Shown here: positions 1,435-63,518 of the stretch, piece by piece
How positions within the stretch are numbered: the stretch's first letter is position 1
Layout of the letters: each line of letters begins with the position of its first letter
The notes under the pieces: model-generated
Told to the model about the DNA's origin: nothing
The model's database searches: none
Seen by the model: only the letters and a program-made list of their open reading frames with translations
Translations under genes and position numbers: made by a program
Source: Cephalotus follicularis
Taxonomy: Eukaryota; Streptophyta; Magnoliopsida; Oxalidales; Cephalotaceae
Direction: 5' to 3'
Assembly (NCBI GenBank): GCA_001972305.1
Contig: BDDD01000341.1
Span: forward strand, 270,501 to 334,500
DNA: 64,000 nt

Positions 1435-4377
1435 TGTAACACCCCCGAAATGATGGGAGTCGTTACGGTTCCTAATCCGAGACTAAGCATAACCTATCAT
1501 ATAACATGGCTCAATTCTATTCCTTTTTATCAATTTATTAGCTTAGCATATATTCCTATTTAACTATAAATCAAGGTTCGCCTTTATTCTTACTATCAAA
1601 TTATTAACTCATCTTTAATTCAAATTGCGTGATGGTCTAAACATAACATTTATAATATAAGACATAGTCTGAAAACTTTATTCATAATCCGAAAACTTAA
1701 ACATAAACCAAAGCTGAAACATAATCCAAAGTCATAAACTGAAAGACATAATATTACTCAAATAGGGGTTCTAACATGACCATAAAATAACTAAGCAAAA
1801 ACGGTTCCATCTCCTAGGTGCTCCTTATCATAAGTGACATCTCGCACATCACACATTGCCCGGATGCTGTCCCAGAATACCTGTCGCATGGAAACAAAAA
1901 CGCGGCTGAGCAAACCTCAGTACGGATATAGAATCATAAAACATAAAACAATAATTTAAAAGATTAGAAAATACCTGAATCTTTAAAAATCATATACCTT
2001 AGATAAAATAATTTAATACGATTTTCAAAAAGCAAAAGTAAATAATCACACAATCAATTCAAAAGGAATATCTAATTTTCAAAGTGTTATTCAATTTCAA
2101 AACATAATCTAAGTTCAAAACAGTATCCAAATCAAACGTTCAAATTACTTTAACGTCAGCCAATTAAAGTTTTCAAAATAAAAACCTATCCGATTCCAAA
2201 ATCTCATCATAGAGATCCAAACATATAACAGAGACTTATCCGATTCCGATATCTCATTACCGAGATCCAAAGCGCATACACATATGCGAAGTTGCAAGGG
2301 GTTTGCAAGGCCCACATGCCAAACGGAAAGACGTGTACGGCACTACACAATCAGTCCCCAAAATACGATTCCTTAACATATCAGATACTAGAGTATACCC
2401 ATACGCCTCTATCACAAAATCGGATCCATAAATCCACCTCATGGGATTTATTCAAAACAAAGAGAGACGCCGTAGTCAAATCACACCGCTACGGAAGTGT
2501 CACGTCCCCGTGCCAGGCCCACGACGTGCCTATGGTACCTCCATAGGTAGGAAATATCTCTGTATATATCCTTTTTCAAAAACATTGCTTTATTTCTAAA
2601 AACAATTTAAAACGTAAACACATTTTTCTAAACGTTTTCTAGACATAGCAAAATAATTACATAGCATCAACTCATTTAATTTTCCACTATAAAGAGATGA
2701 TCGTATCATATTTCTTAACACATCATAGCATAAGAATAAATTCAAGAACATTAAATTCTCAAAATGTCAACTGACTTTTATTTTCAAAATAGTATCGAAT
2801 CATAAAAACATAGCCAGGTTCATAAAACAACAGGAATCACATTTGAATTCATTTCAGTAAAACCGAAGGAATAAGCCAAGAACAGAAAATCCGTACCTTA
2901 AGCGATCACAACAAAGATAGATGAAATGATCAACAATTTTAAAAGTCCCTCGAAGCACAAAAATCTAAAAGATGCAATATCATTCATATAAGCATTCAAG
3001 TATCACTTCCAAACATCAAACAGTAATTTAATAGTGTTTAAAACGGACTCCAAATCATTAGACAGACAAACGGATTACAAAACTTAAAACCAGAAAATTC
3101 ACTGGACAATTCCAGCTGACTGTATCAAGATCCAGTCGACTACTCAAAGGTGGCAGTCGACTGTGTGGCATAGGCAGTCGACTACTCATACTAGGTTGAA
3201 TCTAGTCGACTGTGATAGGGGGTCCAGTCGACTGTGCAAGGCAAAACAGTCGGCTATTTCATGAGGCAGTCGACTGTTCTGGGCGACAGAACAACAAAAA
3301 CAACTGTTTCAATTCCAATTTTCTGTCAAAACCATTTTTACTACATTACCAGATGATTTTAAACACTTACCTAGGTCTTATGTGACTTAACAGTTGCATT
3401 CAAACATCCAGAATCAAAAGTTCATGCAATGGGTGATCTTTCTTTAAAGAGAAGCAATTTCAATTTATTGCATGCATGCTTATATGATCAAGTTTCTCTC
3501 ATTAATCATTATCCTTAATAAAAACCAGTATGTATCATCTACCTAATGCATGTCGACAGGTCCAGTAGCCATGGTTGAAGAAATCAAACAAACCACACAA
3601 GCAACCAACATGAACAAAAAACCAACATCCAAGTTAAACCATAACAATAGAGAAACAAACCTGATATGATGAACAAAGAAGCACAAAACAGTCTCCAAAC
3701 TTGCAGGTTAGGCTACCAGGAGATAGATAAACAATGGAGGCACAAACAATGCATAATGACATACATATACAATATGGGAAAGGCAATTTAGGTCATGGTA
3801 AGGCAAAATGGAAATCAAAATCTGTTATGATAAGGAAAAGGAGCAAAATTTCGGGATTGAAGGAGAGGAAGAAGGAAAGAAATCAGTTTTGTGAGAGGGA
3901 AAGGGAAGAAAAAAGGGAGAGAGAGGGAAGAAAATAGGAAATAAAAATAAATTGTCATAATACTCTTATTTTGCCATATTAATATTAAAACTAATTTATA
4001 ATACAAACCATTGATTTTATCTTTCCCATAATCCCTATTCCAATAATTTATCAAAAGCCCAAAGATGGTATTTATTTAGCCTAAGTCATAAAAACCCAAA
4101 AATTATAATATCATATATCTCATAAATTAAAATATACCGAAATAACAATAAAACTGATATTATATTTATACAAAATATAATTCAATTAATTTTACTTATT
4201 CATGTACATAGTCCAACCAATATTCAACAGCCCAAAATTAACGTCTTTAAGCCTAAAACATAAAAGCCCAATTAAAGTTGACCAACCATATAATAAAATA
4301 AAATTCCAAAATATGCACAGCAACATAAAATCAAACAATAATCCGAAAATAAGCACACGAACAAACGGGGTATTACA
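1435..4377 (-). repeat. 5' LTR of element A
   Basis: The boundaries are TGTAACACCCCC at 1435 and GGGGTATTACA ending at 4377, so both ends have the TG..CA form and a short inverted repeat. The inner boundary abuts the primer site. At 2943 bp this is a long LTR of Tekay size. It contains a palindrome array at 3113-3276. A possible minus-strand TATA sequence (GATATATACA) lies at 2561-2570, but I cannot confirm it as the promoter. No coding capacity is evident. Confidence 0.85.
3113..3276. repeat. Phased CAGTCGACTG palindrome array (LTR A)
   Basis: Eight 10-bp sites matching or nearly matching the palindrome CAGTCGACTG start at 3113, 3133, 3154, 3175, 3203, 3225, 3247 and 3267. Steps are 20, 21, 21, 28, 22, 22 and 20 bp. 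Four sites are exact on at least nine bases each side of the core, and the others differ by one to three bases. The spacers between them share no obvious sequence. Confidence 0.9.
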
Positions 4378-5820
4378 ATTTAAATGGTTGTACTAGAGCC
4401 TTAGGGTGTCCCAGGAATTTACCATCGTGCTAGATTTTAAACCGGACTTTTCGGTCCCACCTGATTATCATAATTGTTAATATATTTTAGACATGTTTCA
4501 TTTAGTGGGAGGATAGCATTTTGGAGATGCTAATTTGCATGAGCGATTGGATTTGTTGGACAATTGTCACCTCATGAAGGTGTAGTCTTGGCATCACCAC
4601 ATTCAAGCATTCTTGTCAAAGGTCATGCGTGTAGCAATTAATCACATGGGTGTATATGAAGAAATATCAAATTGAGAGATATGGGCATTGTGTGCATATA
4701 TATGAGGAGGCCAAAATTGGCTTGCGCAAGGCACAAGTTCGGCCGCCAGTCTCTTGTCTTTTTATGCCAATTCAAATGTAGCCAAACATCTAGCGTAGAA
4801 TACTCAAGACCCATGTGAAGGAATGGGCACAAGTATGGCATTATATGACAAGTATGGCATTATATGACAAGTATGGCATGAGGCATGGTGCTTACTCCTT
4901 CTTGTCTCTTTGATTTCTCTTTAGGCCGGCCTTATGAGAGTGAGAGAGAGACTTAGAGTCATACATTAGTAAAATTACAAACTCTTTCTCTCTTTTAGAG
5001 CCTTGGCCTAACTCTCTTTCTTCTCATGTTCTTCTTTAGTCCTCTATTGGTAGCCATTGAAGGAAAGAGCTTAGAGCTCTTAAGAAGAAAGTTAAAACAC
5101 ACACATCTCCTATCACTCTTTCCTTTGATCACTATAGGTGGAGTTACTTTACATATTGTATTGTAACTTTATCTATTTTGGTCACTAGCTTGGGCATTGG
5201 AACTCTCCATACAACTAGGTTCCTTGGATATCATTTTGTCCTTGGATAGCCTTACATGGTATGAGATTGTAAGTTCTGAAATTTTGTGTGTGTGTAACCT
5301 TTAAAGTTTCAGCCCTTTGGTGGATCTTTTTGGTCACGGCTTGGAGGTGCCTTGGAGCTCAAGTCTTGGAGCTTGGAGAATAGGATAAGAACCTTAAAGT
5401 GTAGAGGGAGCATTCTTGAAGGAAGGAGCCATCACTTTTGGTAATGAAATCTTAAAATCCTTCTTGATTTTCTCACTTTGTGGTTTCGGGTATAGCTAGG
5501 GCTTCATGGTGGAACCCTAACCAAACCCTTTGGGATTGTTGTTGAGACCCAAACGAAACCCTTGTTGTTTGGTTCCTTGATGCCCACAGGTTCACTAGGG
5601 TTTGCTAGGTAAACCCTAGGCCTGTTGATGCTTGGACCCGAAGCTAAGGTTATGGAAACCCTAGCTTCACCCGTGAGCTTCATTGCTTGCTTGACATGTT
5701 TATGGTTCAATTGGAGATTAATTTGTGATCCTAGGACTACTATGGACATTTATGGACATAGAGAAATGGTCAGAAGGTCGTACTGGAGTGGTCTCCGGGA
5801 CCAGTCTCTAATGATTTAGT
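4378..5820 (+). repeat. LTR-like remnant B, related to the LTR of element K
   Basis: No coding region is supported. Around 5330-5530 the sequence resembles 62860-63040 in the LTR of K: both have cttgaaggaa(g/a)gagccatcac, then a gtaa, then a tttgtgg..tcgg stretch and gctaggg followed by ccaaaccc. The order of features is the same. I infer a decayed LTR of the same superfamily of sequences in plus orientation. Neither boundary nor a duplicated target is clear. Confidence 0.5.
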
Positions 5821-17140: not shown

Positions 17141-17142
17141 AC

Positions 17143-33530: not shown

Positions 33531-33870
33531 TCGATGTCTATTAAAAGGCGTCGATGTCTTTGTCCATCAACGTCGATATCCAAATCCTTAGTGTCAGCGC
33601 TTTCTACTGTTTGAAGACGTCGATGTCCATTTTATACACATCGATGCTCAAGGTCTAGAAACTTTAAACGTCAGCGTATTGCTTACGGCGTCGATGCATT
33701 AAGGTGGGAACCTTAGGCGTCGACGTGTAATACGTCAAAACCCAAGCAGATAGCCTAAGGCGTCGATGTTTTTCCAAAGACGTCGATCAGTTTCACGTAA
33801 GTAACCAAGCAAATACCCAAAGGCGTCGATGTTCTTAAAAAGGCATCGACGTGTTTCGAGTACCAGTCGT
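33531..33870. repeat. Phased GACGTCGATGTC array (3' LTR of G)
   Basis: Cores begin at 33531, 33551, 33573, 33594 (degenerate), 33620, 33641, 33671 (degenerate), 33691, 33720, 33763, 33783, 33826, 33846 and 33867. Most steps are 20-22 bp or about twice that (43). A second cluster at 34591-34746 has cores at 34591, 34604, 34625, 34656, 34674, 34723 and 34743. Confidence 0.88.
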
Positions 33871-34933: not shown

Positions 34934-34948
34934 TCCACCCCCCCCTTC
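34934..34948 (-). other. Polypurine tract of element G
   Basis: The minus strand reads GAAGGGGGGGGTGGA directly before the 3' LTR start at 34933. Confidence 0.88.
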
Positions 34949-34980
34949 AAGGAATTTCGTCCTCGAAATTGAAAACAAAA

Positions 34981-36546: not shown

Positions 36547-36595
36547 ATATTCCTCCCAGACAAATGACGTCTTCTTCTGGGGGCTCAGCTATCCT

Positions 36596-37639
36596 TTAAA
36601 AGTTCTGGATAAACCTCCTGTAATACCCTACCAATCCAAGGAAACTGCGCACCTCCGTCACGTTCTTCAGTTGTGGCCAGTCTCGCACCACTTCAGTCTT
36701 TGACCGATCCACCGTCAAGCCTTCCCCAGATACGATGTGACCGAGAAAGATCACATGATCAAGCCAGAATTCACACTTGTTGAACTTGGCGTACAACCGA
36801 TGTTCTCTGAGAACTTGCAATACTAGCCTCAAATGATGAGTGTGCTCCTCCTCACTCCTCGAATATACAAGTATGTCATCAATGAATACCACAACAAACT
36901 GGTCCAGGTATGGCCAAAATACATCATTCATCAATGACATGAAGGCTACCGGTGCATTGGTAACACCAAACGGCATCACCAAGAACTCGTAATGGCCATA
37001 CCGTGTTCGGAAGGCAGTCTTCTCAATGTCTCCTTCCCTTACTCTCAGTTGATGATAACTCGATCTCAAATCGAGCTTGGATAACACTCTTGATCCTTGC
37101 AACTGGTAAAAAAAATCCTCGATGTGGGGTAAAGGATACTTGTTCTTGATAGTTGCCTTGTTCAACATTCTGTAGTCGATGCAGAGCCTCATCGACCCAT
37201 CCTTCTTCTTGATGAACAGTACAGGTGCACCCCACGGAGAAACACTGGGTCTTACAAAACCCTTATCAATCAGGTCTTGTAACTGTAACTTCAGCTCTCG
37301 CAACTCAACAGGAGCCATCCGATAAGGTTATTTAGAGATAGGAGCCGTTCCAAGAACAAGATGAATAAAGAACTCCATACTCCTCTTCAGTGGTAAAGAT
37401 CCCAAGTCATCAGGAAATACATCCAGAAATTCGCACACCACTGGAATCTCTTCCAGGCCCAACCCTTTTCCTTTCCTTCGATCAATTACATAAGCCAAGT
37501 ATCCCTCGCATCCCTTCTCTAGATACCTCGATGCTCGAATAAAGGATATGATCGGTGTCGAGAATCCCTTGTCTCCCTTGAACTGAAATGTCGTTCCGTC
37601 GGGCAGACAAAAATCCACAGTTTTATTATAGCAATCCAT
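36596..37639 (-). pseudogene. pol: Reverse transcriptase of element G; RNase H deleted downstream
   Basis: The leader (37639-37328) shows IPVVCEFLDVFPDDLGSLP and TAPISK, then a TAA before [12 protein letters not shown]. The core follows intact: [43 protein letters not shown] (Asp), [11 protein letters not shown] and [11 protein letters not shown] with both catalytic Asp. It ends [18 protein letters not shown], a stop and a frame change. Only about 15 residues later (KKTSFVWEE) the sequence jumps to VVADALSRKA, so roughly 110-120 residues of RNase H are missing. Confidence 0.87.
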
Positions 37640-37654
37640 GCGAGCACGGTGTGC

Positions 37655-37924
37655 TTATAGCCAATCCATTCCTAGTATAACATCGAAGTCACGGATAGGC
37701 AGCCCTATTAAATTTGCATACAAAGAAATGCCTGCCATAGACATCTCACAACTCCTATATATCGAGTCAGTATACATAGAAGTCCCAGTCGGTGTACTCA
37801 CATCAAGTATATATGACATGCAGCCAGGGGTGACATCTAAGAAAGATGCAAAACGTGCAAATATAAAAGAATGCGATGCTCCAGAATCCATCAATACTCT
37901 AGCAGAAAAACCATATATATACAT
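37655..37924 (-). pseudogene. pol: Aspartic protease of element G
   Basis: Residues read ARVLMDSGASHSFIFARF with the catalytic Asp-Ser-Gly, then LDVSTPTGTSMYTDSIYRSCEM and LPIRDFDVILGMDWL. The domain is uninterrupted and ends with a stop just after GMDWL, before the connection to reverse transcriptase (MDCYNKTVDF at 37639). Active-site residues are all present. Confidence 0.85.
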
Positions 37925-38089
37925 AGTATCTCCAACAACAGAAGTCGACTCTGGAACCTCTGTCTGAGCAAGTATAAAAACTCTACCTTTTACGATGCCC
38001 TTGCCGGTGTCCTTCCTCTGTGACTGTCACACTGCTTCACCACTACTACTCCCCGGCGTAGTAGGCGCTGTAGCAAAACTCTTCGGACA

Positions 38090-39136
38090 GTCCTTCACCG
38101 AATGGCCAGGTGCCCAACACCTCAAGCACCAACCATTGAACCTCCATCAATCTTTCTGTTGGTGGCCTGTGCGACCACAATAATAGCAACCTCCGGATGT
38201 AGAATTACTCCCTTGGTTGGGAGTACCCTGTGAAGCTGTCTGATGAGACTTGTTCTTAGACGACTTCGTCGGAGAACCACCATCTTTCCATTTCGACGAT
38301 GCCGGTCGGGACTGTGTAGGACCCTATTTATTCTGCTGTGCGCGAGCTCTCTCAGCCCAGTCTTCACTGGATATTGTCTCCACTAGTCTTGCTTTCTGAG
38401 CAACCTCCATAAAAGTCCCCAGTTCCATAGCTCTAATTCTTGATCGAAGATCCGATCGCATACCTCTCAGGAATCTCCGTATCTTCTTCACTTCATCAGC
38501 TACTAGATAAGGTGAATGTCTGGCCAGCGCCATGAACCTTGCTTGATACTCATCCACAGTTATCTCTCCCTGTCGCAACTCCAAGAGCTTCATCTCTCCT
38601 TGCTCTTGTTCAATACACGGAACATAAGTCTCCAAGAACTCCATCTGGAATCTGTCCCAAGTGCTGTCCAGTCTCTGTGATTCCCATTTTTCTTTGACCA
38701 TCTCCCACCAATGAGTGGCCTCACCCCATAGATGGTATACAGCAAACTTCAGCTTTTGAGTGTCAGTACAGTCCATTACTTCCAAGATTTTCTCCAAGTC
38801 CTGCAGCCATCTCTCAGCAACAGTAGCATCAAGTTCCCCCTAGAAACTGGGCGGATTCAGCCTCATGAACTTTTCAATGTCCCTCCCAAACTGGTTATTA
38901 TTCTCTCCCGGGCAGTGGTCGGGAGCTCTATGTTGAGGCCGAGCTTGCGCGTAGTACTGGCGCATCTCCTCTGTATTAGCCCTATTAAAGGCCATCTGTT
39001 GCTGAAAATAATCCGCAATTCGGGCCATCGGATCTCTGTCATCTTGGGGAACATTCATTCCTTGCAGAATATTTACTTCCCCAGGGGCATTGGCTCCAAC
39101 AGCTCTAGCCCTAGCACGTGTTCTCCTTCGGTCCAT
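38090..39136 (-). pseudogene. gag: gag of element G, broken in a zinc knuckle
   Basis: It starts MDRRRTRARARAVGAN at 39136, about 100 bp past the primer site. Then comes EKFMRLNPPSF and a stop (TAG about 38840), and the capsid-like core AERWLQDLEKILEVMDC, HLWGEATHWWEMVKEKW, FLETYVPC and LLELRQGEITVDEYQARFMALA, ending at 38324. The tail holds two zinc knuckles. In the first (CYYCGRTGHQQKD) the fourth ligand is a TGA instead of Cys. The second (CLRCWAPGHSVKDC) is complete at about 38120-38090. Confidence 0.83.
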
Positions 39137-39232
39137 TGGTTCCTATAAGAAGGATGGCGGTTAGTCACAACTTCAGGAAAACAATTTATTAATTGTCGAG
39201 GAAAATTTCCTAACAAAGCATATTTGGAATAT

Positions 39233-39244
39233 GCCCTTATACCA
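39233..39244 (-). other. Primer binding site of element G, degenerate
   Basis: The minus strand reads TGGTATAAGGGC, differing at two positions from the initiator tRNA-Met site TGGTATCAGAGC. It is three bases inside the LTR. Confidence 0.8.
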
Positions 39245-39247
39245 CTC

Positions 39248-41961
39248 TGTCACACCCCGATTTTCGAGACGACAACATTAAAGAGGTAAGGCAATTAACA
39301 TATAAATCCAGCTTATGCAAATATCATAAAATTTAAACATTTAAACAAGATATCAATTACGGAAGCATTAAACTTATAAGCTGAAAACTCGTAACGTGCA
39401 TCCCATACTGCACGCTACACAAACAAATCTGTCATTGTTAATAGCCCTCAAAACGGAGCGTGATCACAGTACATTATTAAATCCCATTGTTAAACAAAAC
39501 CATAAGTACGGTACATTAGTAGTCCTTAAACAAAACCAGGCTTATTACAAAACAGGAGAATTAAAACCAAGAACAACTACAACATAAGGACTTGTTCTTC
39601 GTCCATGCCAGTCCAACCGGTCCACTGCATCAATCTGTAAAGTAGCCTTTGTCCTCACTTGGCTAAGTCATAAAAGTAGCTCGGGATCAACATTAAATGC
39701 ATGTCATGTAATGTATGCATAAATGATGCAGTGCAGGAAATACCGATTTATATATATATATATATATGAAAATATATATATATTTTAGCAGTGCAGTAAA
39801 AATAACAGTGGGTTCATATATATGAAAAATATATGTATGCAAGAACAGTACAGTTGTAACCCTGCCAGGGCTACATCAACAGGCACAGTAATGTTTGAAA
39901 AGGACCAACAGGCAGTACAGTAAGTCCACAAAGGACCATAACAGTCAGGCAACATGTGTAACGCCGCCAACTCCTAGCCCCACCTGACTCCCACTTTGGT
40001 CCCTACTCTAGGCAACCAAGCGAGGCAAGAGTACAATACAGTGAGTCACCCAGCCAACTCCTGGCCCCTAGGTCAACCCTACCACTAGCCGACACTGGCA
40101 GTCTCCACCATGCAACCAGTGGCTCAAGCACAAACATAGTAAATTCATAGAGCAACAGTGAATCAAAACATAAATCAGTGCAGTAAACAGTACAGTGGTG
40201 ATCGTTTAGATTGAAAACAGGCAGTTCATTTTCAAATATTTTGAAAGTGATAATATTTGAAATATGTATTTCTAATAGATAGAAAATACTTAACAATTCA
40301 ATAGTAGAAATTGCTTTCCAATTCATTCGAAAATACGTTATTAGTCAATACATATTTTCATACTCAAAATGGAGCATTCCGAGTTCACATATGCATTTCT
40401 AAATATCATAACTTTAGAAATCATAATCAATTTACACACAGTAACCAAACAGGCAGTAAACAATGTATATGCAATGTATACAAATGCTCAAATGCACCCT
40501 AATAGAAATCGGGATCGTTTCGCTTCGTTAAATAAGGAAACCTCCAAACAGTACCAAAAGACGTCGATGTCTATTAAAAGGCATCGATGTCTTTCTCCAT
40601 CAACGTCGATGTCCAAGTCCTTAGTTTCAGCGCTTTCTACTATTTGAAGACGTCGATGTCCATTTTATACGCATTGACGCTCAAGGTCTGGAACCTTAAA
40701 ACGTCGGTGTATTGCTTACGGCGTCGACGCGTTAAGGTGGGAACCTTAGGCATCGATGTGTAATACGTCAAAATCCAAGCAGATAGCCTAAGGCGTCGAT
40801 GTTTTTCCAAAGACGTCGATCTGTTTCACGTCAGTAACAAAGCAAATAACCCAAAGGCGTCGATGTTCTTAAGAAGGCGTCGACGTGTTTCGAGCACCAG
40901 TCGACTTCTTCCTCACGACTTGACAAACAGTAGCCATTACAAACCACATACATGCAAGGTGACATGTAATCAAGGCAGGAAACCAACATGCAGATACATA
41001 TCACATATCTAGCATAACATGGCATTGATCCAGTGAGCAAAACAATTCACTAATCATGCAATTTATACACCAACACCATAGTCCATGCATGAATATTAAT
41101 CTCAAGAGTACAGTCATGGCTTCCCCTACCTTTTGTTCCAAGTTAGGAACTAGAAAGTCCACCTCTTTGTGTTCCAAACTGGTCACAGTAGCCCCTAGCT
41201 CCATCCCTGCAAGCCACCAGCTCCCAGTTCCAAGCTCCAACCAAGTTCAACAATGGTGGAAACGTTTATCCCTCCTCACTGTTTCTTTTGTGTTTTCCTT
41301 TCTCTTATTTTCCTCCTCATTCGTTTTGGGAAGAGAAGGGAGTTTTATGCAGGTTGAAGTTTGTTTCCCTCTGCACCAATGCCAGAATCTCCACTTTCTT
41401 CATACATTCTCCTCACCTGGTTGCATGGTGCACCAGGTGTCTCCCCTTTGCTGCCAAGGCCAATGCATGCTCTCGCATGCCTTCCCACTTCTGCCGTTTC
41501 AGTCCTAGCAGTTTAGGGTACCCTATTGCATGCTCAACATGTCATGATCTGCATGTTAAGATGCCTAGATAGTGCCCCCCTTGCACGTTATTTTGTGAGC
41601 AGAGTAACATGCCTGACATTCGATGTTACACATCGACGTCTTTTTAAAAGACGTCGACGCCTTTTCCCTTTTTACGCGAGGGCGTCGATGTCCTCGCCTG
41701 CATCGATGTGCATGTGCATGAGTTACGTGCGTCTCTCAGACCCAAAGACATCGATGCGTTCAGAAAGGCGTCGACACATTTTCCCCAAAACAGCGTCGTT
41801 TTACCCTTTTAACATTCATTTAACATTTCTTACTCTAAAATTCACATTATTAGAGTTTGGAAAACATCATCAAATCCTTGGAAATCCATCACTTTATTAA
41901 TTCCACAATAAAAACATATTACATTATGAAATTACAACATAGGAAAATCGCGGGCGTTATA
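39248..41961 (-). repeat. 5' LTR of element G
   Basis: It starts TGTCACACCCCGATTTTCG and ends GCGGGCGTTATA, where the other copy ends TTACA. The GGTTA duplication follows. It is uninterrupted and serves as the reference for locating element Y in the other LTR. AT microsatellite sequence lies at about 39749-39783. Confidence 0.92.
40564..41775. repeat. Phased GACGTCGATGTC arrays (5' LTR of G)
   Basis: Cores begin at 40564, 40584, 40606, 40627 (degenerate), 40653 and 40674, and further sites continue to about 40895. A second cluster lies at about 41632-41775. Positions match the 3' LTR arrays, with several point differences inside cores, many of them CG to TG or CA. Confidence 0.85.
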
Positions 41962-43622: not shown

Positions 43623-43970
43623 ATTGATTAAGGCAACAATTCGTTACACCTTACAACTTCGTGATTGACCTCAATCACAAGACCTTGACCTCAAAGCCTT
43701 AGAGGATTCTCCTATTTTACAAGTAATGATAAAAGTGTTTACAAGATGACCTCTCAAATAGGTAGGTGTGAAAAATACAGCTCTTAATATGAAACACTCA
43801 GATAATCTCAAAGAGTAAAGCTTAAAAGCTTGTTAGAACACAATTGAGCACTTTGAGCTTTTTGCACACTAGAATGCTTGGATTTGATATTTCTCTTGAT
43901 GTTGTGTAATTGATGTGAATAATTCTGAAAACTTGTTTTTCCAGTGTAGTTCTCTGAGGTTTGAATCTTC

Positions 43971-43980
43971 CTTTTATAGC
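43971..43980 (-). promoter_or_regulatory. TATA box, SIRE-type 3' LTR
   Basis: The minus strand reads GCTATAAAAG. The palindrome array lies about 100-600 bp upstream in the direction of transcription. The other LTR has the same box at 49977-49987. Confidence 0.7.
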
Positions 43981-44078
43981 CACAAAAGATTTGTAGCCGT
44001 TGCATAAATCATGGAAGCTTTTGATTTAATAATGTGTAGTTGCAATGTTTGAATTTGTCTTCTACTGACATAAAGACG

Positions 44079-44578
44079 TCGACTTCTTTTTAAAGTCGTC
44101 GATGTCGTTGGAAGTGCGTGTACTAGCCGTTCCAGGTTTCTTGGGTCAAACCATTTAAAAAGACGTCGATGTCTTTTTAAAAGGCGTCGATGTCATTTCT
44201 AGGAAATGTCCACGTATTGAAACTTTGAGCATCATATCGACTTCTTCTGTAGGGGTCGATGTATTTTCTGGGAAATGCAGGTAGCTCTAGAAAGGCGTTG
44301 ATGTCTATTAAAAGGCGTCAATGTCTTTTGTACTGACGTCGATGTCTTTACATATAGGATCGATGTCTTCAATTGCAATTTTGAACAGTAGCTTCTGGCA
44401 CTAAAGACGTCGATGTCATTTTGAAAGTAGTCGATGTCTTTCGGTAGGGACGTCGATGTCATAACTGGAAGGACGATGTCTTCATTGTATTTTGATCTTG
44501 CACTAAAGACGTCGATGTCTTTGTGGAAGGGATCGATGTCTTCTTGTACAAAAGTCGATGTCATTTATTGAGAGTCGA
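44079..44578. repeat. Phased GACGTCGATGTC array (SIRE 3' LTR)
   Basis: Eighteen cores begin at 44079, 44099, 44166, 44187, 44237, 44256, 44298, 44318, 44339, 44360, 44410, 44431, 44453, 44473, 44512, 44533, 44555 and 44575. Twelve of the seventeen steps are 19-22 bp. The others are 67, 50, 42, 50 and 39 bp. Spacer sequences differ. Confidence 0.92.
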
Positions 44579-44701
44579 TGTCTTCTTCTGCAGATGGTAT
44601 TTTGCTTTGGTATTGAACCTGTAATTTCTTGCACATCAAGTAAACTTATCAAATGCAAATATGTTATCATCAAAACAAGGATTGAGACTTAATCGTCAAT
44701 A

Positions 44702-44715
44702 ATCTCCCCCTTTTT
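44702..44715 (-). other. Polypurine tract of the SIRE-type element
   Basis: The minus strand reads AAAAAGGGGGAGAT immediately before the 3' LTR, the form usual in SIRE elements. Confidence 0.85.
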
Positions 44716-45435
44716 GATGATGACAAAAATTTGCTCAAAAGGCATAAATTAAAGTAATACCAATTTTAAAACGTAAGCAAATAATAGAGAGTTAAGTTAT
44801 AATGTAAGCAAGGGCAAAGTTAATAAGAGAGTTCCTGTGCAATAAGCTATAAGCAATCACACTTTAGTATTTTGAGCCATTTAGCCATTTCTACCTTTTA
44901 ATAATCAATGTAGCAATGCTATTAGGTTCTCATATGCTTTTGAGTTCTCTTTGAGCATTTCTCCCCCTTTTTTGTATAGCATCAAAAAGTTCTACAAAAG
45001 GGCAGAAATCATTAGCTCCCCCTTAATAAAAGCAAGGGTAAAAAGAATATGAACATATGCAATATGAACAAAATATCATAATATCGGCAATGAACATAAT
45101 TATCGGCAATAATTGAGAAAACATAATCATACAACTCAATTATATCATAAATCAAAAACTCATTCATACAATCATAAACACAATTCATAACATCATTTCA
45201 TGAACATAATTTTATAAACATTTCATTAATATCATAAATTCATAAACAAACATTGTCTTACAAAGGATAAGTAAACACTTAGTTTTATTACAACTCAACT
45301 AAAAACAAAAGCCGAAACAAATAGAAAATAGAAACAACAACAACAAGATCAGGCAGCAGGAGGAGGGGCATCAGAATCGGATTCATCACCCGAAGTCTCT
45401 TCGCAGTGATCAATAGCCTTGGAATTGGCAAGCTT
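44716..45435. other. AT-rich 3' untranslated tail of the SIRE-type element
   Basis: No coding region is evident. It contains repeated CATAAT/ATCATAA words (45060-45240) and joins the sense ORF to the polypurine tract. Confidence 0.6.
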
Positions 45436-46662: not shown

Positions 46663-46869
46663 TTTTACAAAAAGTTGGTGAGCACTAGGAGAAGTCACTG
46701 AGAATGACACAAATAGATGGATTGGAGTAGACGAAAAAGGTTTTTGTAGATGGAGAAGGAATCAGAGGATGTTTTACGACCAAATAGAACGATTTTTGAC
46801 AGAAAACAAAAAGAGAAGAAAATTTTCGAAAACACAGAAGAAGGGTTAAAATGAGGAATGAACATGAGG

Positions 46870-47139: not shown

Positions 47140-47249
47140 CATTTTTGTGAAGCAGAACACAAAATCAAGCAAAAACAGAACAATAACAAAAAACAATCAT
47201 CACATCAATTATGCATTCATTCAATCATATCATTCAAACATAATAATCA

Positions 47250-49556
47250 TCATTCAAGCTCACACAAACCTAATTCTCTTCTAAACTTAGAAAAAGAATT
47301 CTCATCTAAGGGTTTGGTGAAAATATCCGCCACTTGTTTTTCGGTGGGAATATACTCTAAAACAATGTAACCACATTCTATGTGTTCTCTTAAGAAATGA
47401 TATCTAATGTCAATGTGTTTTGTCCTAGAGTGATGGACTGGGTTCTTAGCAAGGCAAATGCTACTAGTGTTATCACATTTGATAGATACATCCTTAACAC
47501 ATATACCATAATCAACCAATTGTTGCTTTTGCCAAAGAACTTGAGCACAACAACTACCTACTGCAATATACTCAGCTTCAGTGGTAGATAAAGGTACTGA
47601 ATTTTGCTTCTTACTAAACCAAGAGACTAGCATGCTTCCTAGGTATTGGCATGAGCCACTAGTGCTCTTGCGGTCTACTTTATAACCACCAAAGTCGACA
47701 TCCGAGTAAGAATGTAAATCAAAATTGGAATCTCGAGAATACCATAAGCCTAATGTAGGAGTGTATGCAAGATATTTAAAAATCCTTTTCACAGCAAATA
47801 AATGAGATTCTTTGGGATTGGATTGAAAACGGGCACACAAGCACACACTAAACAAAATATCGGGTCTACTTGCGGTTAAGTACAATAAAGAACCTATCAT
47901 ACTTCTATAAAGCTTTTGATCGATACATTTACCTTGTTCATCTTTGTTAAGCTTTGTAGAGGTACTCATTGGTGTCTTGCTCGTTTTAGCATTCTCCATC
48001 CCAAACTTTTTGAGTATATCCTTTGTATATTTTGTTTGGTTGATGAAGATCCCGTCTTTGTTTTGTGTAACTTGTAGTCCGAGAAAGTAGTTGAGCTCTC
48101 CCATTAAACTCATTTCAAATTCAAATTTCATTGTATTTGAAAATTCCTTGCATAAAAAATCATTAGTAGATCCAAAGATAATATCATCAACATAAATTTG
48201 AACAATAAGTAGATCATTATCTTTAGACTTTGTAAAGAGATTAATATCAACATTTCCTCGTTTAAAATCATTTTCAATCAAAAACTTTGTCAATCTCTCA
48301 TACCAAGCATGAGGGGCTTGTTTGAGTCCATATAAAGCTTTGTTCAATTTGAAAACATGATTTGGAAAGTGAGGATCCTCAAAACCTTGAGGTTGTTCAA
48401 CATATACCTCTTCTTTAATAAAACCATTTAAAAATGCACTTTTCACATCCATTTGATATAATTTGAAATTATTAAAACATGCAAATGCAAGCAACAAACG
48501 AATGGATTCTAGTCTAGCAACCGGTGCATATGTCTCATCATAGTCTATTCCTTCTTCTGGTGAATAGCCTTGGGCAACTAGTCTAGCCTTATTTCTAATA
48601 ATGGTTCCTTGGTCATCCATCTTATTTCTAAAAACCCATTTGGTTCCTATAACCGAATGGTGCTTTGGTCTAGGTACTAAAAACCAAACTTTGTTTCTAT
48701 CAAATTGATTTAGCTCTTCTTGCATAGCTACAATCCAATTTGCATCTTTTTCCGCTTCTACACAATTTTTGGGTTCTAGGTGAGAAAGGAATGCAACATA
48801 GTTACAAGTGTTTGCTCTAGATCTAGTTCTAATACCTTGTTGAATGTCACCTATGATAGCCTCATGTGGGTGGTCTCTAACAACCTTGTAAGTCTTATCT
48901 ATGAGTTCTTTTTGGTAGCTATCCTTAGGTTCAACTTCTATGTCCTCTTATGGTCCATGAAAATCTATACTATCATGCATATGTGAACTTGAATCATGCA
49001 ACTCATCAAATACAACATGCATAGATTCTTCTACTAATAAAGTACGCTTATTGAAACATCTATAAGCTTTACTAGAGAGGGAGTAGCCAAGAAATATACC
49101 TTCGTCCGCTTTCGAATCAAACTTACCAAGTTGATCTTTGCCATTGTTGTGAATAAAACATTTACATCCGAAGGCATGGAAGTAACCAATGTTAGGCTTT
49201 CTCTCCTTCCATAACTCGTATGGAGTCTTTTTGAGAATAGGCCTTATTGATGTTGTATTTAAAATATAACATGCGGTGTTTGTGGCTTCCGCCCAAAAAT
49301 ACTTTGGTAAATCATTTTCGCAAAGCATTGTCCTAGTCATTTCTTCTAAAGTTCTATTTCTCCTTTCAACAACACCATTTTGTTGAGGAGTCCTAGGGGT
49401 TAAAAATTCATGTTTAAAACCATTTTGAATGCAAAAATCATCAAAAATATTATTTTCGAATTCTTTGCCATGGTCACTTCTAATTTTCAAAATTGAAAGT
49501 CCTTTTTCTTTTTGAATAATTTTACAAAAATTGGCAAAGAAAGTAAAAGTTTCACT
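47250..49556 (-). pseudogene. pol: SIRE-type pol: integrase C-terminal part, reverse transcriptase, RNase H
   Basis: Reading begins mid-integrase with KSETFTFF, then IRSDHGKEFEN (second catalytic Asp), TPQQNGVVERRNRTL (Glu) and the GKCFIHN..KLGKFDSKADEGIFLGYS region. The zinc region and first Asp are deleted. After a single in-frame TAA (48950-48948) the same frame continues to RT: NQFDRNKVWFLVPRP, GTKWVFRNKMDDQG, ARLVAQGYSPEEGIDYDETYAPVARLESIR, MDVKSAFLNG, LYGLKQAPHAWYERL and catalytic QIYVDDIIFGST. RNase H shows YSDVDFGGYKVDRKSTSG, STTEAEYIAVGSC, IKCDNTSSICLAKNPVHHSRTKHIDIRYHFLRE and ADIFTKPLD. RT and RNase H active sites are complete. It is the best-preserved pol in the window. Confidence 0.9.
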
Positions 49557-49559
49557 TTT

Positions 49560-50724
49560 ATGTGGTTCGGCTAACTCTTGCCTACGCCCACTTTTCCCAA
49601 GGGAGCTCCTTGAGTTTCCACTATCCCGAATTGATTAAGGCAGCAATTCGTTACACCTTACAACATCGTGATTGACCTCAATCACAAGACCTTGACCTCA
49701 AAGCCTTAGAGGATTCTCCTCTTTTACAAGTAATGAAAAAAGTGTTTACAAGATGACCTCTCAAATAGGTAGGTGTGAAAAATACAGCTCTTAATATGAA
49801 ACACTCAGATAATCTCAAAGATTAAAGCTTAGAAGCTTGTTAGAACACAATTGAGCACTTTGACCTTTTTGCACACTAGAATGCTTGGATTTGATATTTC
49901 TCTTGATGTTGTGTAATTGATGTGAATAATTCTGAAATCTTATTTTTCCAGTGTAGTTCTCTGAGGTTTCAATCTTCCTTTTATAGCCACAAAAGATTTG
50001 TAGTCGTTGCATAAATCATGGAAGCTTTTGATTTAATAATGTGTAGTTGAAATCTTTGAATTTGTCTTCTGCTGACATAAAGACGTCGACTTCTTTTTAA
50101 AGGCGTCAATGTCTTTGTAGTTGATAGCCGTTGGAAGTGCGTGTACTAGCCGTTCCAGGTTTCCCGGGTCAAACCATATAAAAAGACGTCGATGTCTTTT
50201 TAAAAGGCGTCGATGTCATTTCTGGAAAATGTCCAGGTATTGAAACTTTGAGCATCACATCGACTTCTTCTGTAGGGGTCGATGTATTTTCTGGGAAATG
50301 CAGGTAGCTCTAGAAAGGCGTCGATGTCTATTGAAAAGCGTCGATGTCTTTTGTACTGACGTCGATGTCTTTGCATATAGGATCGATGTCTTCAATTGCA
50401 ATTTCGAACAGTAGCTTCTGGCACTAAAGACGTCGATGTCATTTTGAAAGTAGTCGATGTCTTTCGGTACGGACGTCGATGTCATAACTGGAAGGACGAT
50501 GTCTTCATTGTATTTTGATCTTGCACTAAAGACGTCGATGTCTTTGTGGAAGGGATCGATGTCTTCTTGTACGGATGTCGATGTCATTTATTGAGAGTCG
50601 ATGTCTTCTTCTGCAGATGGTATTTTGCTTTGGTATTGAACCTGTAATTTCTTGCACATCAAGTAAACTTATCAAATGCAAATATATTATCATCAAAACA
50701 AGGATTGAGACTTAATCGTCAACA
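49560..50724 (-). repeat. 5' LTR of the SIRE-type element
   Basis: It probably runs from TGTGGTTCGGCTAACTC at about 49564 to CGTCAACA at 50724. Its inner end abuts integrase codons directly, without a primer site, showing that the deletion begins at or just inside the LTR. The first 70 bp have no counterpart in the 3' LTR. Confidence 0.78.
50086..50600. repeat. Phased GACGTCGATGTC array (SIRE 5' LTR)
   Basis: This is the counterpart of 44079-44578, with the same order of cores and spacing. Point differences include restoration of TCGA at sites that read TTGA or TCAA in the other copy (for example near 50320). Confidence 0.9.
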
Positions 50725-52342
50725 ATTCCATTCAATAAATTCATAAATAAGCGGAAGCATTCAAAAGCCGGAATATAACATACAAGTCATCCGCACGCAG
50801 CCCATACTACGTGCAGGTACAATCCAACAAATTATCCTTTCATAAGGAAGTACAACAGTAACATGGGGTATGAACCGTTCATTAGAAATACAGTATAACA
50901 TCAGAAAATAACAACCTTAAGTCGAAAATAGAAGCTCTCCAAGCTTCAGCAGCCATCTCCGAACGTCCTTGCTTAATCTAAAATTGTAGGGGTTAGCCGT
51001 TGTCCTCACTTGGCTAAGTAGGAAGATAATGCATGCTAAGGAATATATAATGCAACATGTATGACAGTTTATATTAAAATAACATTTAAGTATTCCAATA
51101 TATAAGCAATCATGCCAAGTGGCCATAGACAATACAAATGCAAGAATACCGCACAAGGGTACAATCAATTCATACTGTGGTTGGGTGTCACATGTCGCTA
51201 ACTCCTAGCACCAACTGTGCACCACCTAACTATCACCCTACAATCAGAAGATGATAGATAAGGTAACATTTACTACCGGCATTGGCGGACAATTTAACAA
51301 TCAAGCTATGCATTGCAGGCAGTTTTGGTGTGTACTCTAGCCAACTCCTGGCACATTGGACCACCTCTATTAGCCAGTGACATATGACATCACTCGACTA
51401 ATCGGCAATAACATAGACAATCGATTCAATCAATTCAGTTCAATAATAATATCACATATATGTATAATATGCAAAATAAAAGTTGTTTTCTTTAGAAACA
51501 TTTAACAATTCATTGATCGTACATCTCATAGGAGGAAAATGATATCAATACAATAATGGTTCCCAGCATGAGAATAAAACAGTAGGTACCTCTCATAGGA
51601 GGAAAAATTAGTAGTTCTTTTAACAATAAGCTTTCATTTGAAAATGATGGTTGATATCATGAATCGTGCATATAGCACTTAGTTTGTTCAATCTTTGGAA
51701 ATATGGAAACAATTAGGGTTTATAACACCCACTAGTATATGCTAATTAACAGTAGCATATACAACACAATAGCAAGACAGCAGCAATTCAATTGAGCCCA
51801 AACAGGACCTATATCAGAACTTTAACCCAGGACAGTCGGCTGTTTTGATTGGGTAGTCAACTGTTTTCTCTTAACAGTCAACTGGATAGGTTGAGTAGTC
51901 TATTGTCATGAAGAACAATCGACTGCCTTGCCCAGAAAATGCAGGCAGTTTGCAGGGTATAATCTTTAATATCCAAATGCTAACTCAATTAATACATGCA
52001 ATCAAACAGAAATTAAACATACATGATATGCATAATATATCTTCCAAAAACATGTCATTACCCTTACCTTAAACGTTATCCCAAGATCAATTGGGATTGA
52101 TCTCTCTCTTTGAGTTTCCAAGCATTTTCCACCAACCAATCCTTCAATTCCAGTAGAATTAATCTATATCGTGCATGAATGAAGGTTCAGTCATCTAAAC
52201 CAATAGGTTTATCTAATTGTCCAGTTACAAATATTACTCCACAGTAGCTTATCACAAGTTCATTAAGCCCCAAAACTATCTTTTTACAACCTCTCCTTCA
52301 GTTTATTAAACAACTTCTAATTCCAACTTAATTCCCAGGCTG
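50725..52342 (-). repeat. LTR fragment J, right part
   Basis: It continues the LTR started at 43505 and shares a word order with the LTR of G: a GTTAGCC..TGTCCTCACTTGGCTAAGT stretch (50990-51030), a CAACTCCTGGCAC stretch and a palindrome array. No LTR end of the TTACA form is found before protease-like sequence of element H begins near 52340, so the right end is truncated. Confidence 0.65.
51833..51925. repeat. Phased AGTCGACT-type array with 21-bp steps (LTR J)
   Basis: Sites CAGTCGGCTG, TAGTCAACTG, CAGTCAACTG, TAGTCTATTG and CAATCGACTG have centres beginning at 51836, 51857, 51878, 51899 and 51919. Steps are 21, 21, 21 and 20 bp. The palindrome type is that of element A, and the spacers are unrelated. 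Confidence 0.9.
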
Positions 52343-60851: not shown

Positions 60852-62528
60852 TTGTTGGAGTTAGGTGTCCCTATAAGCCATGAGGTGGCTAAATGGGTAT
60901 ACATATATGATACATTCCATAATTGGAATAATCCATGCTAACCTATGGTGGGCTGCATGTATGTACTTTAAACTCTTATCCTACATTCTAACTTACAGTT
61001 ATGTTCGATTGTGCAAATATATTCACAATGGCAAACCGACTATATGTTATATCCCAAACCGTCAAAAGCGGATCAGTTGATCGCCATGTCAACTGATTAC
61101 ACATATAGCGCCCTGTCACCGAGGGGTTGGATCTCATGCCTAGATAGGTAATGAGAATGAGGTCCTTAGTCCTTTGAGACAGAAGTTACAAGTCATAGGT
61201 TCACTTTATGGGCAATTGATGAACCGCAAAGACTTGTCGTATTATGCTTGCTCCCTCATTTGGAGGACGACTTCTCTCATTTCCATTTGGATGGCACTAA
61301 AGCAGATGCGGGGTGAGTGCTAGAGAGCATGACACTGAACCGACCCACCATAGGTGACCTATCTGGATGGAGATTACCCTTGTCAATAGGATCCCTATGG
61401 TTTTCAATAGTGTATAGTTTGTGGTGACTAGGAGGTCTTTACCTACGTTGTATCCTTAGACCTGAGCAGCTAGCATGTGGTGTGTAGTGATTGCATGACT
61501 TTCATTTTTGCCTTCCCCAGCACTAGCCAGGTGCTGGAAAAAGGGTTGTCTTTGGGTCATGTGGAAGCTGCATTGAGACGTGTGGGCGCAGTTCGCAATA
61601 CGGAATCATCACACCCGTAATGATGGATGAATGGCTCTATATGATCTTGACTATTACTGACTGAAATCCTGGCCAGGTGTAGGTGGAATGGATCAAGGGT
61701 GATTCCAGGGAGGTCCGCCGAAGTCACAATGTGATCAAAGATTCATATGGTCGCGGAATATCTTTGGTCGACATTTAATCCACACCCTTGTCCGTAGTCA
61801 GAGTCAATGGTGATGAGGGTTACATGACACATATGCCGAAGACGGGCTTAAAGCTCTGGCTATCTAGTTTTGGATTGATAGACATGGTGATACACGGATC
61901 CCAGGGTGATGAGAGCTCACACCGGGGCGATCTTGTGAATAGCCGAGAGGACTATTAGGATGGTCGTACCAGAACTTGGGATGTTCTTAGAAACTTATCA
62001 GCATACCAGATATTGACCATGCTTTCCGAGTCCTACCTGCTTTGAACATGTTGACACGTGTGAGAGACACATGTCATTTAGTGAAAGGACAACATCGAGA
62101 CGATGTTGCTTTGCCAGTGAGTATTTCATATGCTAGATTTAGGTCCATGCATTGCCACGATGAAATCTCCAAGCAAAGGGTTGAAATTGTATATAGAAGA
62201 TAGTTTTCTCATCCTAGTATTGGGCGTCGACGCCATAGAGAATAGGAGTCGACGCCATGGATTCTAGTGACTTTAGGCGTTGACAACATGGAGAGCATGC
62301 GTCGACAACATGATAAAGCCCCTGGACGTCAATGTCATGAAGAGCATGCATTGATGCCAAGATGGGAAGACATTGTAAGTCTCATCCACCCTTAAGCGTC
62401 AACGCCATAGGTAGGCGTTGATGCTATGATAGGCAGATGCATCACGTTGACGCCATGGGTCGCATGGCGTTGACGCCTAGACTGGAAGAGTTGATGCCAT
62501 AGGTTAGGCGTTGACGCTTAGAGGAGAG

Positions 62529-62537
62529 TATATAAAG
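62529..62537 (+). promoter_or_regulatory. TATA box of LTR K
   Basis: TATATAAAG lies 15 bp after the last site of the main palindrome array and about 40 bp before a CT-rich tract, a typical plant core promoter arrangement. Confidence 0.7.
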
Positions 62538-62569
62538 CATGAGAGAAGCTTCTTCAACACACAAGTCTT

Positions 62570-62570
62570 T

Positions 62571-62601
<31 letters not shown>

Positions 62602-62610
62602 ATCTCTCTC
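62570..62610. repeat. (CT)n microsatellite downstream of the TATA box of K
   Basis: A near-perfect TC run with two single-base interruptions lies about 35-75 bp after the TATA box, likely within the 5' transcribed leader. Such CT tracts are frequent in plant core promoters. Confidence 0.9.
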
Positions 62611-63518
62611 TTCCTGATCATCTTCTCTCTTCGATCTGCAGAACGTACGTGTCGATGCCATCGGTTAGGTGTCGACGCTATCAATTAGGCATTGACGCCA
62701 ATATCACCTGGTGCAATTTTCAGCCATTTTCAACCATCCTTTCACCCCTAAAAGCTCAATATAGGTGGAGATGATTTGTTCCTTGCATCTCATCTTTATA
62801 TATAGAGTTTATAGTGTAGGATAAACACTTATACCTCCATCCACTCTTCCTTATGTGTGGAATAAGGAAAAGCTTGGAGATCCATGGAGCCTGGAGCTTT
62901 AATGGAGGCTTTGGAATTAAAGTGTTGATGGAGCTCTTGAAGGAAAGAGCCATCACTTTGAGGTAACCAATTTCTTGTCTCCCTCTTTGTGGATTCGGAT
63001 TGGGGCTAGGGTTTGCCAACCATAGCCAAACCCATGATGAATGGGTATGTGGTTTTGTGTTGGAATTGCTTGCTATGGGTAATAGCTTACAATTTGGGTT
63101 GTGGCTCAGGTATGCGTACCTCAGTCGAACCCCCTTGGTTTTGTGGAGGAACCATTGTGATTCCTTAGGGTGAGGGATTGCTCTTGGTTAGGGTTTGTGG
63201 GCCAATTGCTTAGGGATTGTGTGTGTTCCCTTAGTGCAATTGTGTGTGACCATTGTGAGAGTTTATGGCAAGTCTTACTCCAAAGCCGTTTCTCCCTTAT
63301 GCTTGGATCGGCTGGTTGGTTTGGCTACATGATCTATTAGGGTTCCTGGGCTTATTGGGACAATTGTGGACATCGGGTAGGGTAAGCCATTGCTTGGGGA
63401 TCAATCATTTGATTTAAAATTAAAATTGATCTCCCTGTGCCCATAATTAAGTTTGTTTATCTCTTCTGCCGCGCTTAGAGCCTTCGCTGCCCCCATGGTT
63501 CAGGGGGTACCTAACAAG

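What the first reader, a model, noticed from the sequence alone, without database searches (positions are those of the whole stretch)
3113..62695. Helically phased TCGA-centred palindrome arrays shared by unrelated retrotransposons
At least six elements (A, J, G, Y, the SIRE-type Copia, K) carry clusters of 10-12-bp palindromes sharing a TCGA centre but with different arms: CAGTCGACTG (A, J), GACGTCGACGTC (G, Y, SIRE), GGCGTCGACGCC (K). Counted by hand, most centre-to-centre steps are 19-22 bp. Many others fall near 30, 42 or 50 bp, i.e. near multiples of one DNA turn, while spacers do not resemble each other. So this is spacing conserved without sequence conservation, and it crosses the Copia/Ty3 divide. 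Inference: promoter-proximal binding sites for a dimeric factor placed on one face of the helix, or a shared silencing or recombination signal.
Basis: partly seen in the sequence, partly recalled or inferred. Interest (0 to 1): 0.92.

Follow-up and report, generated by a model that had tools for sequence, protein, structure and literature searches.

The report
Palindromic box arrays in plant retrotransposons
Unrelated jumping genes in this plant genome carry rows of the same short mirror-image DNA boxes, often spaced about two helical turns apart, which look like docking sites for a DNA-binding protein that these genetic parasites share.

Summary
The arrays are real and genome-wide. The window lies in a 1.58-Gb plant genome, inferred to be Cephalotus follicularis. 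TCGA-core dyad boxes of three main types recur in LTRs of Ty3 elements and in a Sirevirus (Copia), where they also precede its PF20167 "env-like" ORF. They are a new variant of the published Sirevirus "repeated motif".

The ACG box is an 18-bp near-palindrome (AAAGACRTCGAYGTCTTT), often asymmetric, so its true spacers are short. AGT boxes (CAGTCGACTG) have near-random spacers.

Helical spacing is supported for the ACG type: genome-wide 348 box pairs at steps 23-29, 5,153 at 30-33, 624 at 34-39. It fails as a strict rule for AGT, where 27-28 bp recurs.

Boxes are better conserved than their surroundings in the two locus pairs compared. Two Ty3 elements with 91% identical RT carry different box types (one sparsely), suggesting exchangeable modules.

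Most likely: binding arrays for a dimeric factor that regulates the elements. Bold reading: the factor is the Sirevirus PF20167 protein, used in trans by Ty3 elements, a VANC-like system in retrotransposons. Protein binding is untested, and a CpG-bearing control count never ran.

The parts
3137..3271 (.). Array A, AGT-type boxes (CAGTCGACTG), steps 21,21,28,22,42 (a mutated box CAGTCGGCTA lies inside the 42)
   Evidence: homologous array in L013
31459..32169 (.). About 13 ACG-type boxes (taken as 'G'), many steps 19-22 or 47-52, with one 307-bp gap; 31391-31584 is an inverted 71.5% match to part of the Ty3a LTR
32381..34931 (-). 3' LTR of the Ty3 element (Ty3a); ACG-type boxes in two clusters, 33532-33847 and 34626-34744
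34932..39414 (-). Ty3a internal region: gag, RVT_1, integrase with SH3_Tf2-1; no PF20167 match in a tblastn with two PF20167 proteins (E up to 1e-3)
39415..41959 (-). 5' LTR of Ty3a (94% to the other LTR), ACG-type boxes 40565-40902 and 41634-41772
43623..44703 (-). 3' LTR of the Sirevirus-like Copia element; 9 boxes in the scan, TATA motif 103 bp after the last
44704..45023 (-). Three copies of the Sirevirus polypurine tract AGGGGGAG (CTCCCCCT on + at 44704, 44961, 45016; the window has one further match, at 15351)
   Evidence: motif definition PMC2829016
45436..46587 (-). PF20167 (Transposase_32) 'env-like' ORF, stop to stop; reading upstream there is an in-frame stop near the apparent N-terminus; longer homologues exist in the genome
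46870..47137 (-). Internal array of TCGA boxes between pol and the PF20167 ORF, upstream of that ORF in element sense
47250..48947 (-). Copia RVT_2 reverse transcriptase ORF
49630..50726 (-). 5' LTR of the Sirevirus-like element (95%); 11 boxes in the scan; the integrase ORF begins right at its inner edge, so PBS and gag are missing
51837..51920 (.). Array J, decayed AGT-type boxes at 51837, 51858, 51879, about 51900 (by eye) and 51920
62228..62693 (+). Array K, GGCGTCGACGCC-type boxes (several with TTGA or TCAA centres); TATATAAA at 62529, 17 bp after the last upstream box (62512); three boxes follow it

Best explanation
The arrays are cis-regulatory binding arrays. Each box is a dyad (near-palindrome around TCGA) that most likely binds a sequence-specific nuclear protein as a dimer. 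Boxes stand about two helical turns apart, with three or four turns as alternatives in the ACG type, so that bound dimers lie on one face and cooperate. They lie in LTRs, and in Sireviruses also just upstream of the PF20167 'env-like' gene, so they most likely drive or de-silence transcription of the element and of that gene. The system is the Sirevirus 'repeated motif' with new TCGA cores; box modules are also present in Ty3 elements, most likely by acquisition. Shown: the arrays, the spacing, the conservation in two locus pairs, the cross-superfamily sharing. Inferred: protein binding, dimers, exchange of modules, the effect on transcription, and the identity of the binder.
For: Clustering far above shuffles. 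11 of 20 random 10-kb stretches hold an array of at least three boxes; 36 of 39 AGTCGACT in them have another box within 75 bp. Pairs genome-wide: AGTCGACT at steps 12-42, 153,145 against 452 for the reversed pattern; ACG type at 17-47, 82,536 against 297. ACG steps: 348 at 23-29, 5,153 at 30-33, 624 at 34-39. Footprint A versus L013: boxes 72 of 80 columns identical, spacers 36 of 83, flanks 152 of 251; gapped columns 2 of 165 inside the array against 40 of 291 outside. L006 versus L024, two regions: boxes 92 of 100, spacers 98 of 140, outside 917 of 1,281. Ty3a and Sirevirus LTRs match significantly only at boxes and their A/T flanks. L006 and L023 RTs are 91.4% identical, but the only LTR match between them is 55 bp and their boxes differ. 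Boxes precede a PF20167 ORF in three Sirevirus families. CpG observed/expected is 0.79-1.76 in the 200-bp bins that hold boxes in the Sirevirus and Ty3a LTRs.
Against: No binding, chromatin, methylation or expression data. AGT steps of 27-28 bp are off-face. Longer ACG steps (23 and above) that I could make non-redundant number 16 and are only weakly phased (R 0.46, p about 0.03). Genome-wide counts are inflated by copy number; the 50 sites listed fall into only 3 spacer classes. The only counted controls are reversed patterns without CpG; a CpG-bearing control did not complete. In L006 versus L024 the spacers are as conserved as the flanks. L023 has only a few GCG-type boxes and fails the array criterion. 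CpG is not raised in L006 (0.45-0.84 in its box bins). TATA position is not constant. Footprinting rests on three aligned regions from two pairs of loci.
Confidence: 0.7

Rival explanations
1. Host factor (a rival on the binder, within the binding-array reading): the boxes are sites for an endogenous transcription factor that many retrotransposons have recruited; the PF20167 protein has nothing to do with them.
For: Ty3 elements in which no PF20167 ORF was found carry the same boxes. In L034 10 of 14 LTR boxes read CAGCCGACTG, containing the DREB-type core GCCGAC, and GACGTC is the bZIP C-box (both recalled, not from a call).
Against: Three arm types share only TCGA or YCGA; a single host factor would have to accept all of them. 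Published Sirevirus boxes differ from plant to plant (PMC2829016 Table 3).
Confidence: 0.4
2. RNA hairpin/siRNA signal: palindromes matter in RNA, folding into hairpins that feed or evade small-RNA silencing.
For: Array RNAs fold better than shuffles: z -4.97 (Sirevirus array, 100 shuffles) and -4.27 (array A, 200 shuffles). Maize Sirevirus palindromes are reported as small-RNA hotspots (passages in PMC5311732 and PMC10760457).
Against: Hairpins do not need 10.5-bp phasing, and the asymmetric box GACATCGACGTC is not a perfect hairpin arm. Any array of palindromes folds well, so the z-scores are not independent evidence.
Confidence: 0.12
3. Neutral minisatellite: boxes arose by slippage of a roughly 20-bp unit and the spacing is a relic.
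For: ACG copies often form a clean 19-22-bp tandem unit, and the 38-bp steps are mostly 2 x 19 in the listed rows.
Against: A 30-33-bp peak with troughs on both sides; AGT spacers near random (pairwise identity 0.347 against 0.251, the excess at the box-flanking bases; n=21); boxes conserved above surroundings between families.
Confidence: 0.08
4. Recombination, integration-target or nucleosome-positioning signal.
For: Plant LTR elements are reported often to insert at palindromes (title and abstract start of PMC6911290); LTRs differ between elements with similar RT.
Against: Placement in LTRs and upstream of an ORF points to transcription. I did not test for insertions or breakpoints at boxes.
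Confidence: 0.07

Closest known systems
Sirevirus repeated-motif (RM) boxes (Bousios et al. 2010, PMC2829016: abstract, passages and section 9 seen)
   Same: Palindromic boxes of 10-20 bp, 8-32 copies, mostly in the upper half of the LTR and upstream of the env-like gene, CpG-rich, near a TATA box; Tnd-1 (ACAATCGATTGT) and Vitis (CGGTCGACCG) already have a TCGA centre.
   Different: Here three TCGA-core types occur in one genome, one an 18-bp dyad, with a spacing rule, and the boxes also sit in Ty3 elements; the paper calls the RM a Sirevirus-specific feature, absent from classic Ty1/copia (Ty3 was not in the sections I saw).
VANDAL/VANC anti-silencing (PMC5735166 passages; PMC10398659 abstract and outline)
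   Same: TE-encoded extra protein beside arrays of short motifs in non-coding DNA; motif types differ between related TEs; motifs of VANC6 also occur in an unrelated TE (AT9TSD1).
   Different: VANDALs are not LTR retrotransposons; the protein here matches PF20167; no binding or demethylation is shown.
LTR cis repeats of the Tnt1/Tto1 kind (names recalled; [quoted passage not shown]
   Same: Short repeated, partly symmetrical LTR promoter elements.
   Different: Two or three copies bound by stress-related factors, not arrays of 4-17 boxes shared across superfamilies.
PF20167-related 3'-aORF of sunflower Athila (PMC11728184, passages seen)
   Same: PF20167-related extra ORF with predicted nuclear localisation.
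   Different: In Athila, not a Sirevirus; no box arrays in the passages seen.

Membership tests
Sirevirus RM boxes | Palindromic repeated motif, at least 8 copies per element | tested here: met
   9 and 11 boxes in the two Sirevirus LTRs and 6 in the internal array by the scan
Sirevirus RM boxes | Extra copies upstream of the env-like gene | tested here: met
   Window 46870-47137; L034 2093-2155; L024 1643-1737 (decayed, 2-4 mismatches of 12)
Sirevirus RM boxes | CGG-CCG core signature | tested here: not met
   TCGA core with ACG, AGT or GCG arms; the published Tnd-1 box also lacks it
Sirevirus RM boxes | Confined to Sireviruses | tested here: not met
   Boxes in Ty3 LTR pairs of window Ty3a, L006, L033 and, sparsely, L023
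Sirevirus RM boxes | CpG-rich, conserved TATA shortly downstream | tested here: inconclusive
   CpG o/e 0.79-1.69 in the Sirevirus box bins but 0.45-0.84 in L006; TATA motif 103 bp (Sirevirus) and 17 bp (K) after the last box, not seen so in L034 or L006
Sirevirus (window Copia element) | RVT_2 pol and multiple AGGGGGAG polypurine tracts | tested here: met
Sirevirus (window Copia element) | Attachment site AT/TG and PBS TATCAGAGC | tested here: inconclusive
   After the terminal PPT the 3' LTR junction reads AT/TA, while the 5' LTR begins TG; the PBS word is absent and the internal 5' part is deleted in this copy
VANC-type anti-silencing | TE protein of the VANC family | tested here: not met
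   The only Pfam family at E up to 1e-3 is PF20167; no VANC profile was searched by name
VANC-type anti-silencing | Protein binds the motif and removes methylation | not testable with these tools
   needs DAP-seq and methylation data
Minisatellite | Spacers align as one decayed unit | tested here: not met
   AGT 21-bp steps, n=21 non-redundant; for ACG partly met over its 18-bp box

The most novel reading that the evidence does not exclude
The Sirevirus PF20167 'env-like' protein is a nuclear, box-binding activator or anti-silencer that has co-diversified with the boxes. Each of the three box types occurs beside a PF20167 gene in a Sirevirus (window element, L034, L024; proteins 23-29% identical to each other) and also in Ty3 elements in which no such gene was found (GCG only sparsely), which would then be pirating the factor in trans. 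The L034 element, with 98.6% identical LTRs and little inside but boxes and an open PF20167 ORF, would be a recent derivative reduced to its regulatory module: a VANC-like system in retrotransposons that crosses superfamilies.
Probability: 0.25. Interest if true: 0.92.

Novelty: new variant of a known kind. Interest (0 to 1): 0.74.

Why it matters
If right, Copia and Ty3 retrotransposons, different superfamilies, share one regulatory code in a host, with box modules changing faster than their enzymes diverge. It gives the Sirevirus boxes, described in 2010 without a known binder, a spacing rule and a testable binder, and gives the 'env-like' gene a possible nuclear function. Arrays are dense enough (11 of 20 random 10-kb stretches) that they could matter for gene regulation across the genome.

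Tried and rejected
Helical phasing as a universal rule: rejected, because AGT arrays use 27-28 bp. Packing of 18-bp boxes as the whole explanation: rejected, because it predicts no trough at 34-39 and does not apply to the 10-bp AGT box. Deamination as the sole cause of GACATCGACGTC: unlikely but not excluded. One search lists 13 clusters: the two Sirevirus LTR clusters (7 of 7 and 8 of 8; copies of one LTR, so not independent), L018 (8 of 8) and L001 (4 of 4) lean fully one way, L004 (4 of 5) and Ty3a (6 of 9 and 5 of 9) mostly; the other six (L005, L007 twice, L008, L011, window 41634-41752) are mixed or symmetric. Boxes in IMG/VR contigs: 1 and 7 contigs matched; none of these loci holds an array. 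PF20167 against solved structures: two weak hits, best E 0.23, uninformative. The 12-mer GACGTCGACGTC in the held library: five papers, unrelated by title. Searches for palindromic LTR motifs and for Cephalotus retrotransposons listed none whose title or abstract start describes TCGA arrays in Ty3 elements; full texts were not checked apart from passages of the papers named.

Not obtained: AGT steps of 30-33 and of 43-73, the GCG pair count, the CpG-bearing control ACTCGAGT, and the genome-wide PF20167 search (not completed).

Rows dropped: L001-L003 were left out of the step and profile counts because they were fetched by the box itself; L004 was kept although fetched the same way. One search used the 95 plus-strand rows of the 100 listed. 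One search used those 95 and 54 sequences that I picked from the list, leaving out minus-strand copies and some near-repeats. In one search two of the 50 pasted spacers carried two extra bases, so the 33 and 34 in its output are 31 and 32.
Full report
WHERE THIS IS. The window is contig C341:270501-334500 of a held genome of 1,577,397,061 bases in 9,746 contigs. The Sirevirus ORF at 45436-46587 is 88% identical to Cephalotus follicularis proteins. Three contig lengths quoted for such proteins (1,230,257; 1,006,850; 1,150,280) equal those of C38, C166 and C49; C1 (1,935,158) differs slightly from the contig (1,941,800) of the protein identical to the L034 ORF. I take the genome to be Cephalotus; this is an inference.

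THE ELEMENTS. Two box-bearing elements are complete enough to place. Ty3a, minus strand: LTRs 32381-34931 and 39415-41959 (94%), gag, RVT_1, integrase with the Tf2-1 SH3 domain. A Copia element, minus strand: LTRs 43623-44703 and 49630-50726 (95%), RVT_2, then a PF20167 ORF. The Copia element has three AGGGGGAG polypurine tracts, the Sirevirus hallmark (definition from PMC2829016). Its internal 5' part is deleted, so the PBS cannot be tested. A second Ty3 pair, 18947-21748 / 26683-29461, showed no boxes and serves as a within-window negative.

IS IT MORE THAN CHANCE. TCGA palindromes of 8 bp or more: 34 against 11.1 in 200 shuffles; close pairs 13 against 0.14. With CpG decay allowed, the window plus L004-L024 (267 kb; L001-L003 dropped) hold 250 boxes and 163 neighbouring steps up to 130 bp, against 32-52 boxes and 0-5 steps in 10 first-order resamples. 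Of 20 random 10-kb stretches, 11 hold an array of at least three boxes. AGTCGACT is the commonest 8-bp palindrome there that contains C or G (39 copies in 200 kb), and 36 of the 39 lie within 75 bp of another box. The genome holds 153,145 AGTCGACT pairs at steps 12-42 (reversed pattern 452) and 82,536 ACG half-box pairs at steps 17-47 (reversed 297). The reversed patterns lack the CpG, so they are only rough controls; a CpG-bearing control did not complete.

ANATOMY OF THE BOX. Profiles of 48 AGT, 92 ACG and 48 GCG sites give an ACG consensus AAAGACGTCGACGTCTTT (T is commoner than C at +3) with information ending sharply at +-9. The AGT box is CAGTCGACTG with weak flanks; GCG is about AAGCGTCGACGCTT. 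In element sense the Sirevirus box is mostly GACATCGACGTC. Of 13 ACG clusters, four lean fully one way (two of them the paired Sirevirus LTRs), three mostly, six are mixed or symmetric. The box is thus often a directional near-palindrome; decay at CpG may contribute.

SPACING. No step among the 163 is below 19 and none is 33-40. For ACG, genome-wide counts are 348 at 23-29 (50 per bp), 5,153 at 30-33 (1,288 per bp) and 624 at 34-39 (104 per bp, most of the listed rows being 38 = 2 x 19 with a box or relic between). The remaining 76,411 of 82,536 lie at 17-22 and 40-47; in the 95 rows I tabulated, 63 are at 19-22, 3 at 31-32, 27 at 41-43 and 2 at 45-46. This is a helical spectrum, and a decayed 20-bp minisatellite would not give the three-turn peak. 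Caveats: the 30-33 rows fall into only 3 spacer classes, and 16 non-redundant longer steps are only weakly phased. For AGT, 100 rows give 78 at 19-22, 11 at 27-28, 9 at 41-42, one at 13 and one at 33; 27-28 is about 2.6 turns, off-face. AGT 21-bp spacers (21 non-redundant) have pairwise identity 0.347 against 0.251 shuffled, the excess lying mainly at the bases next to the box.

CONSERVATION. Array A and its homologue in L013 keep boxes (72 of 80) while spacers (36 of 83) are worse than flanks (152 of 251); gapped columns are 2 of 165 inside and 40 of 291 outside. L006 against L024, two regions: boxes 92 of 100, spacers 98 of 140, outside 917 of 1,281; here spacers are no worse than flanks. 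Boxes, and apparently their distances, are under constraint; the gap test counts columns, not events, and rests on one pair.

SHARING ACROSS SUPERFAMILIES. In a short-word comparison, Ty3a and Sirevirus LTRs match significantly only at boxes and their A/T flanks. Carriers: ACG in the Sirevirus (window; L018, RT 93%) and Ty3a; AGT in Ty3 elements L006 and L033 and in L034; GCG, decayed, in the L024 Sirevirus linker and, sparsely (below the array criterion), in Ty3 element L023 and next to the Ty3-like L010. L006 and L023 have 91.4% identical RT yet different boxes, and the only match between their LTRs is 55 bp. L023 and L033, with different boxes, share about 290 bp of LTR at 75%. Box type is thus not tied to pol ancestry, on few elements.

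THE PF20167 LINK. L034 (C1:157001-162500) has 98.6% identical LTRs with AGT-type boxes (14 at 793-1216 with at most one mismatch). Its 2.3-kb interior holds what reads by eye as an RNaseH tail, and a 385-aa ORF of the PF20167 family (2276-3430; its best homologues carry PF20167), with four boxes 121-183 bp before the start codon. In L024 GCG-type boxes, and in the window ACG-type boxes, likewise precede PF20167 stretches. The three proteins are 23-29% identical; by eye their N-termini are basic; no 19-residue stretch exceeds Kyte-Doolittle 1.64 in the two tested. Homologue searches gave 395 and 275 clusters; the 120 listed in each are named Cephalotus. A sunflower Athila ORF related to PF20167 is predicted nuclear (PMC11728184, passages). 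In the 2010 survey, boxes occur in the linker only of env-containing Sireviruses (PMC2829016). All this is correlation; three families are few, and the genome-wide PF20167 search did not complete.

MECHANISM. Shown: dense dyad boxes, a spacing rule, conservation in two locus pairs, sharing. Inferred: a dimeric DNA-binding protein lines up along one face and activates or de-silences the LTR promoter and the internal gene. Binder: host factor or PF20167 itself; I cannot separate them. RNA hairpins (z -5.0 and -4.3) may add small-RNA effects, as reported for maize Sireviruses, but do not explain the spacing.

VERDICT. Observation partly confirmed, interpretation partly supported; a new variant of the Sirevirus repeated motif, with cross-superfamily sharing as the surprise.

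Noticed in passing
L034:624-5249: Short Sirevirus-like derivative with 98.6% identical LTRs that lacks gag and nearly all of pol but keeps an open PF20167 ORF and boxes.
   Followed up: partly
window 18947-21748 and 26683-29461: LTR pair (88%) of a Ty3 element with RVT_1 and no boxes in the scan.
   Followed up: partly
window 44060-50600: ACG boxes in the Sirevirus LTRs lean one way (GACATCGACGTC in element sense) rather than being symmetrical.
   Followed up: partly
L034:793-1216: 10 of 14 AGT-type boxes read CAGCCGACTG, containing the DREB-type core GCCGAC (name recalled).
   Followed up: no
L033:2950-3737: Perfect 394-bp tandem duplication inside the integrase region of a Ty3 element.
   Followed up: no
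window 6768-7658 and 17143-18016: Direct repeats of 0.9 kb (91%) with ORFs matching Transposase_28 (PF04195), RVT_1 and RNaseH between them.
   Followed up: no
window 42484-42671 and 30707-30880: Tandem repeats of 93 and 73 bp.
   Followed up: no
L012:29-138, L022:4371-4485 and 8471-8559, L009:7793-8020: Further box arrays in random stretches whose host elements were not identified.
   Followed up: no
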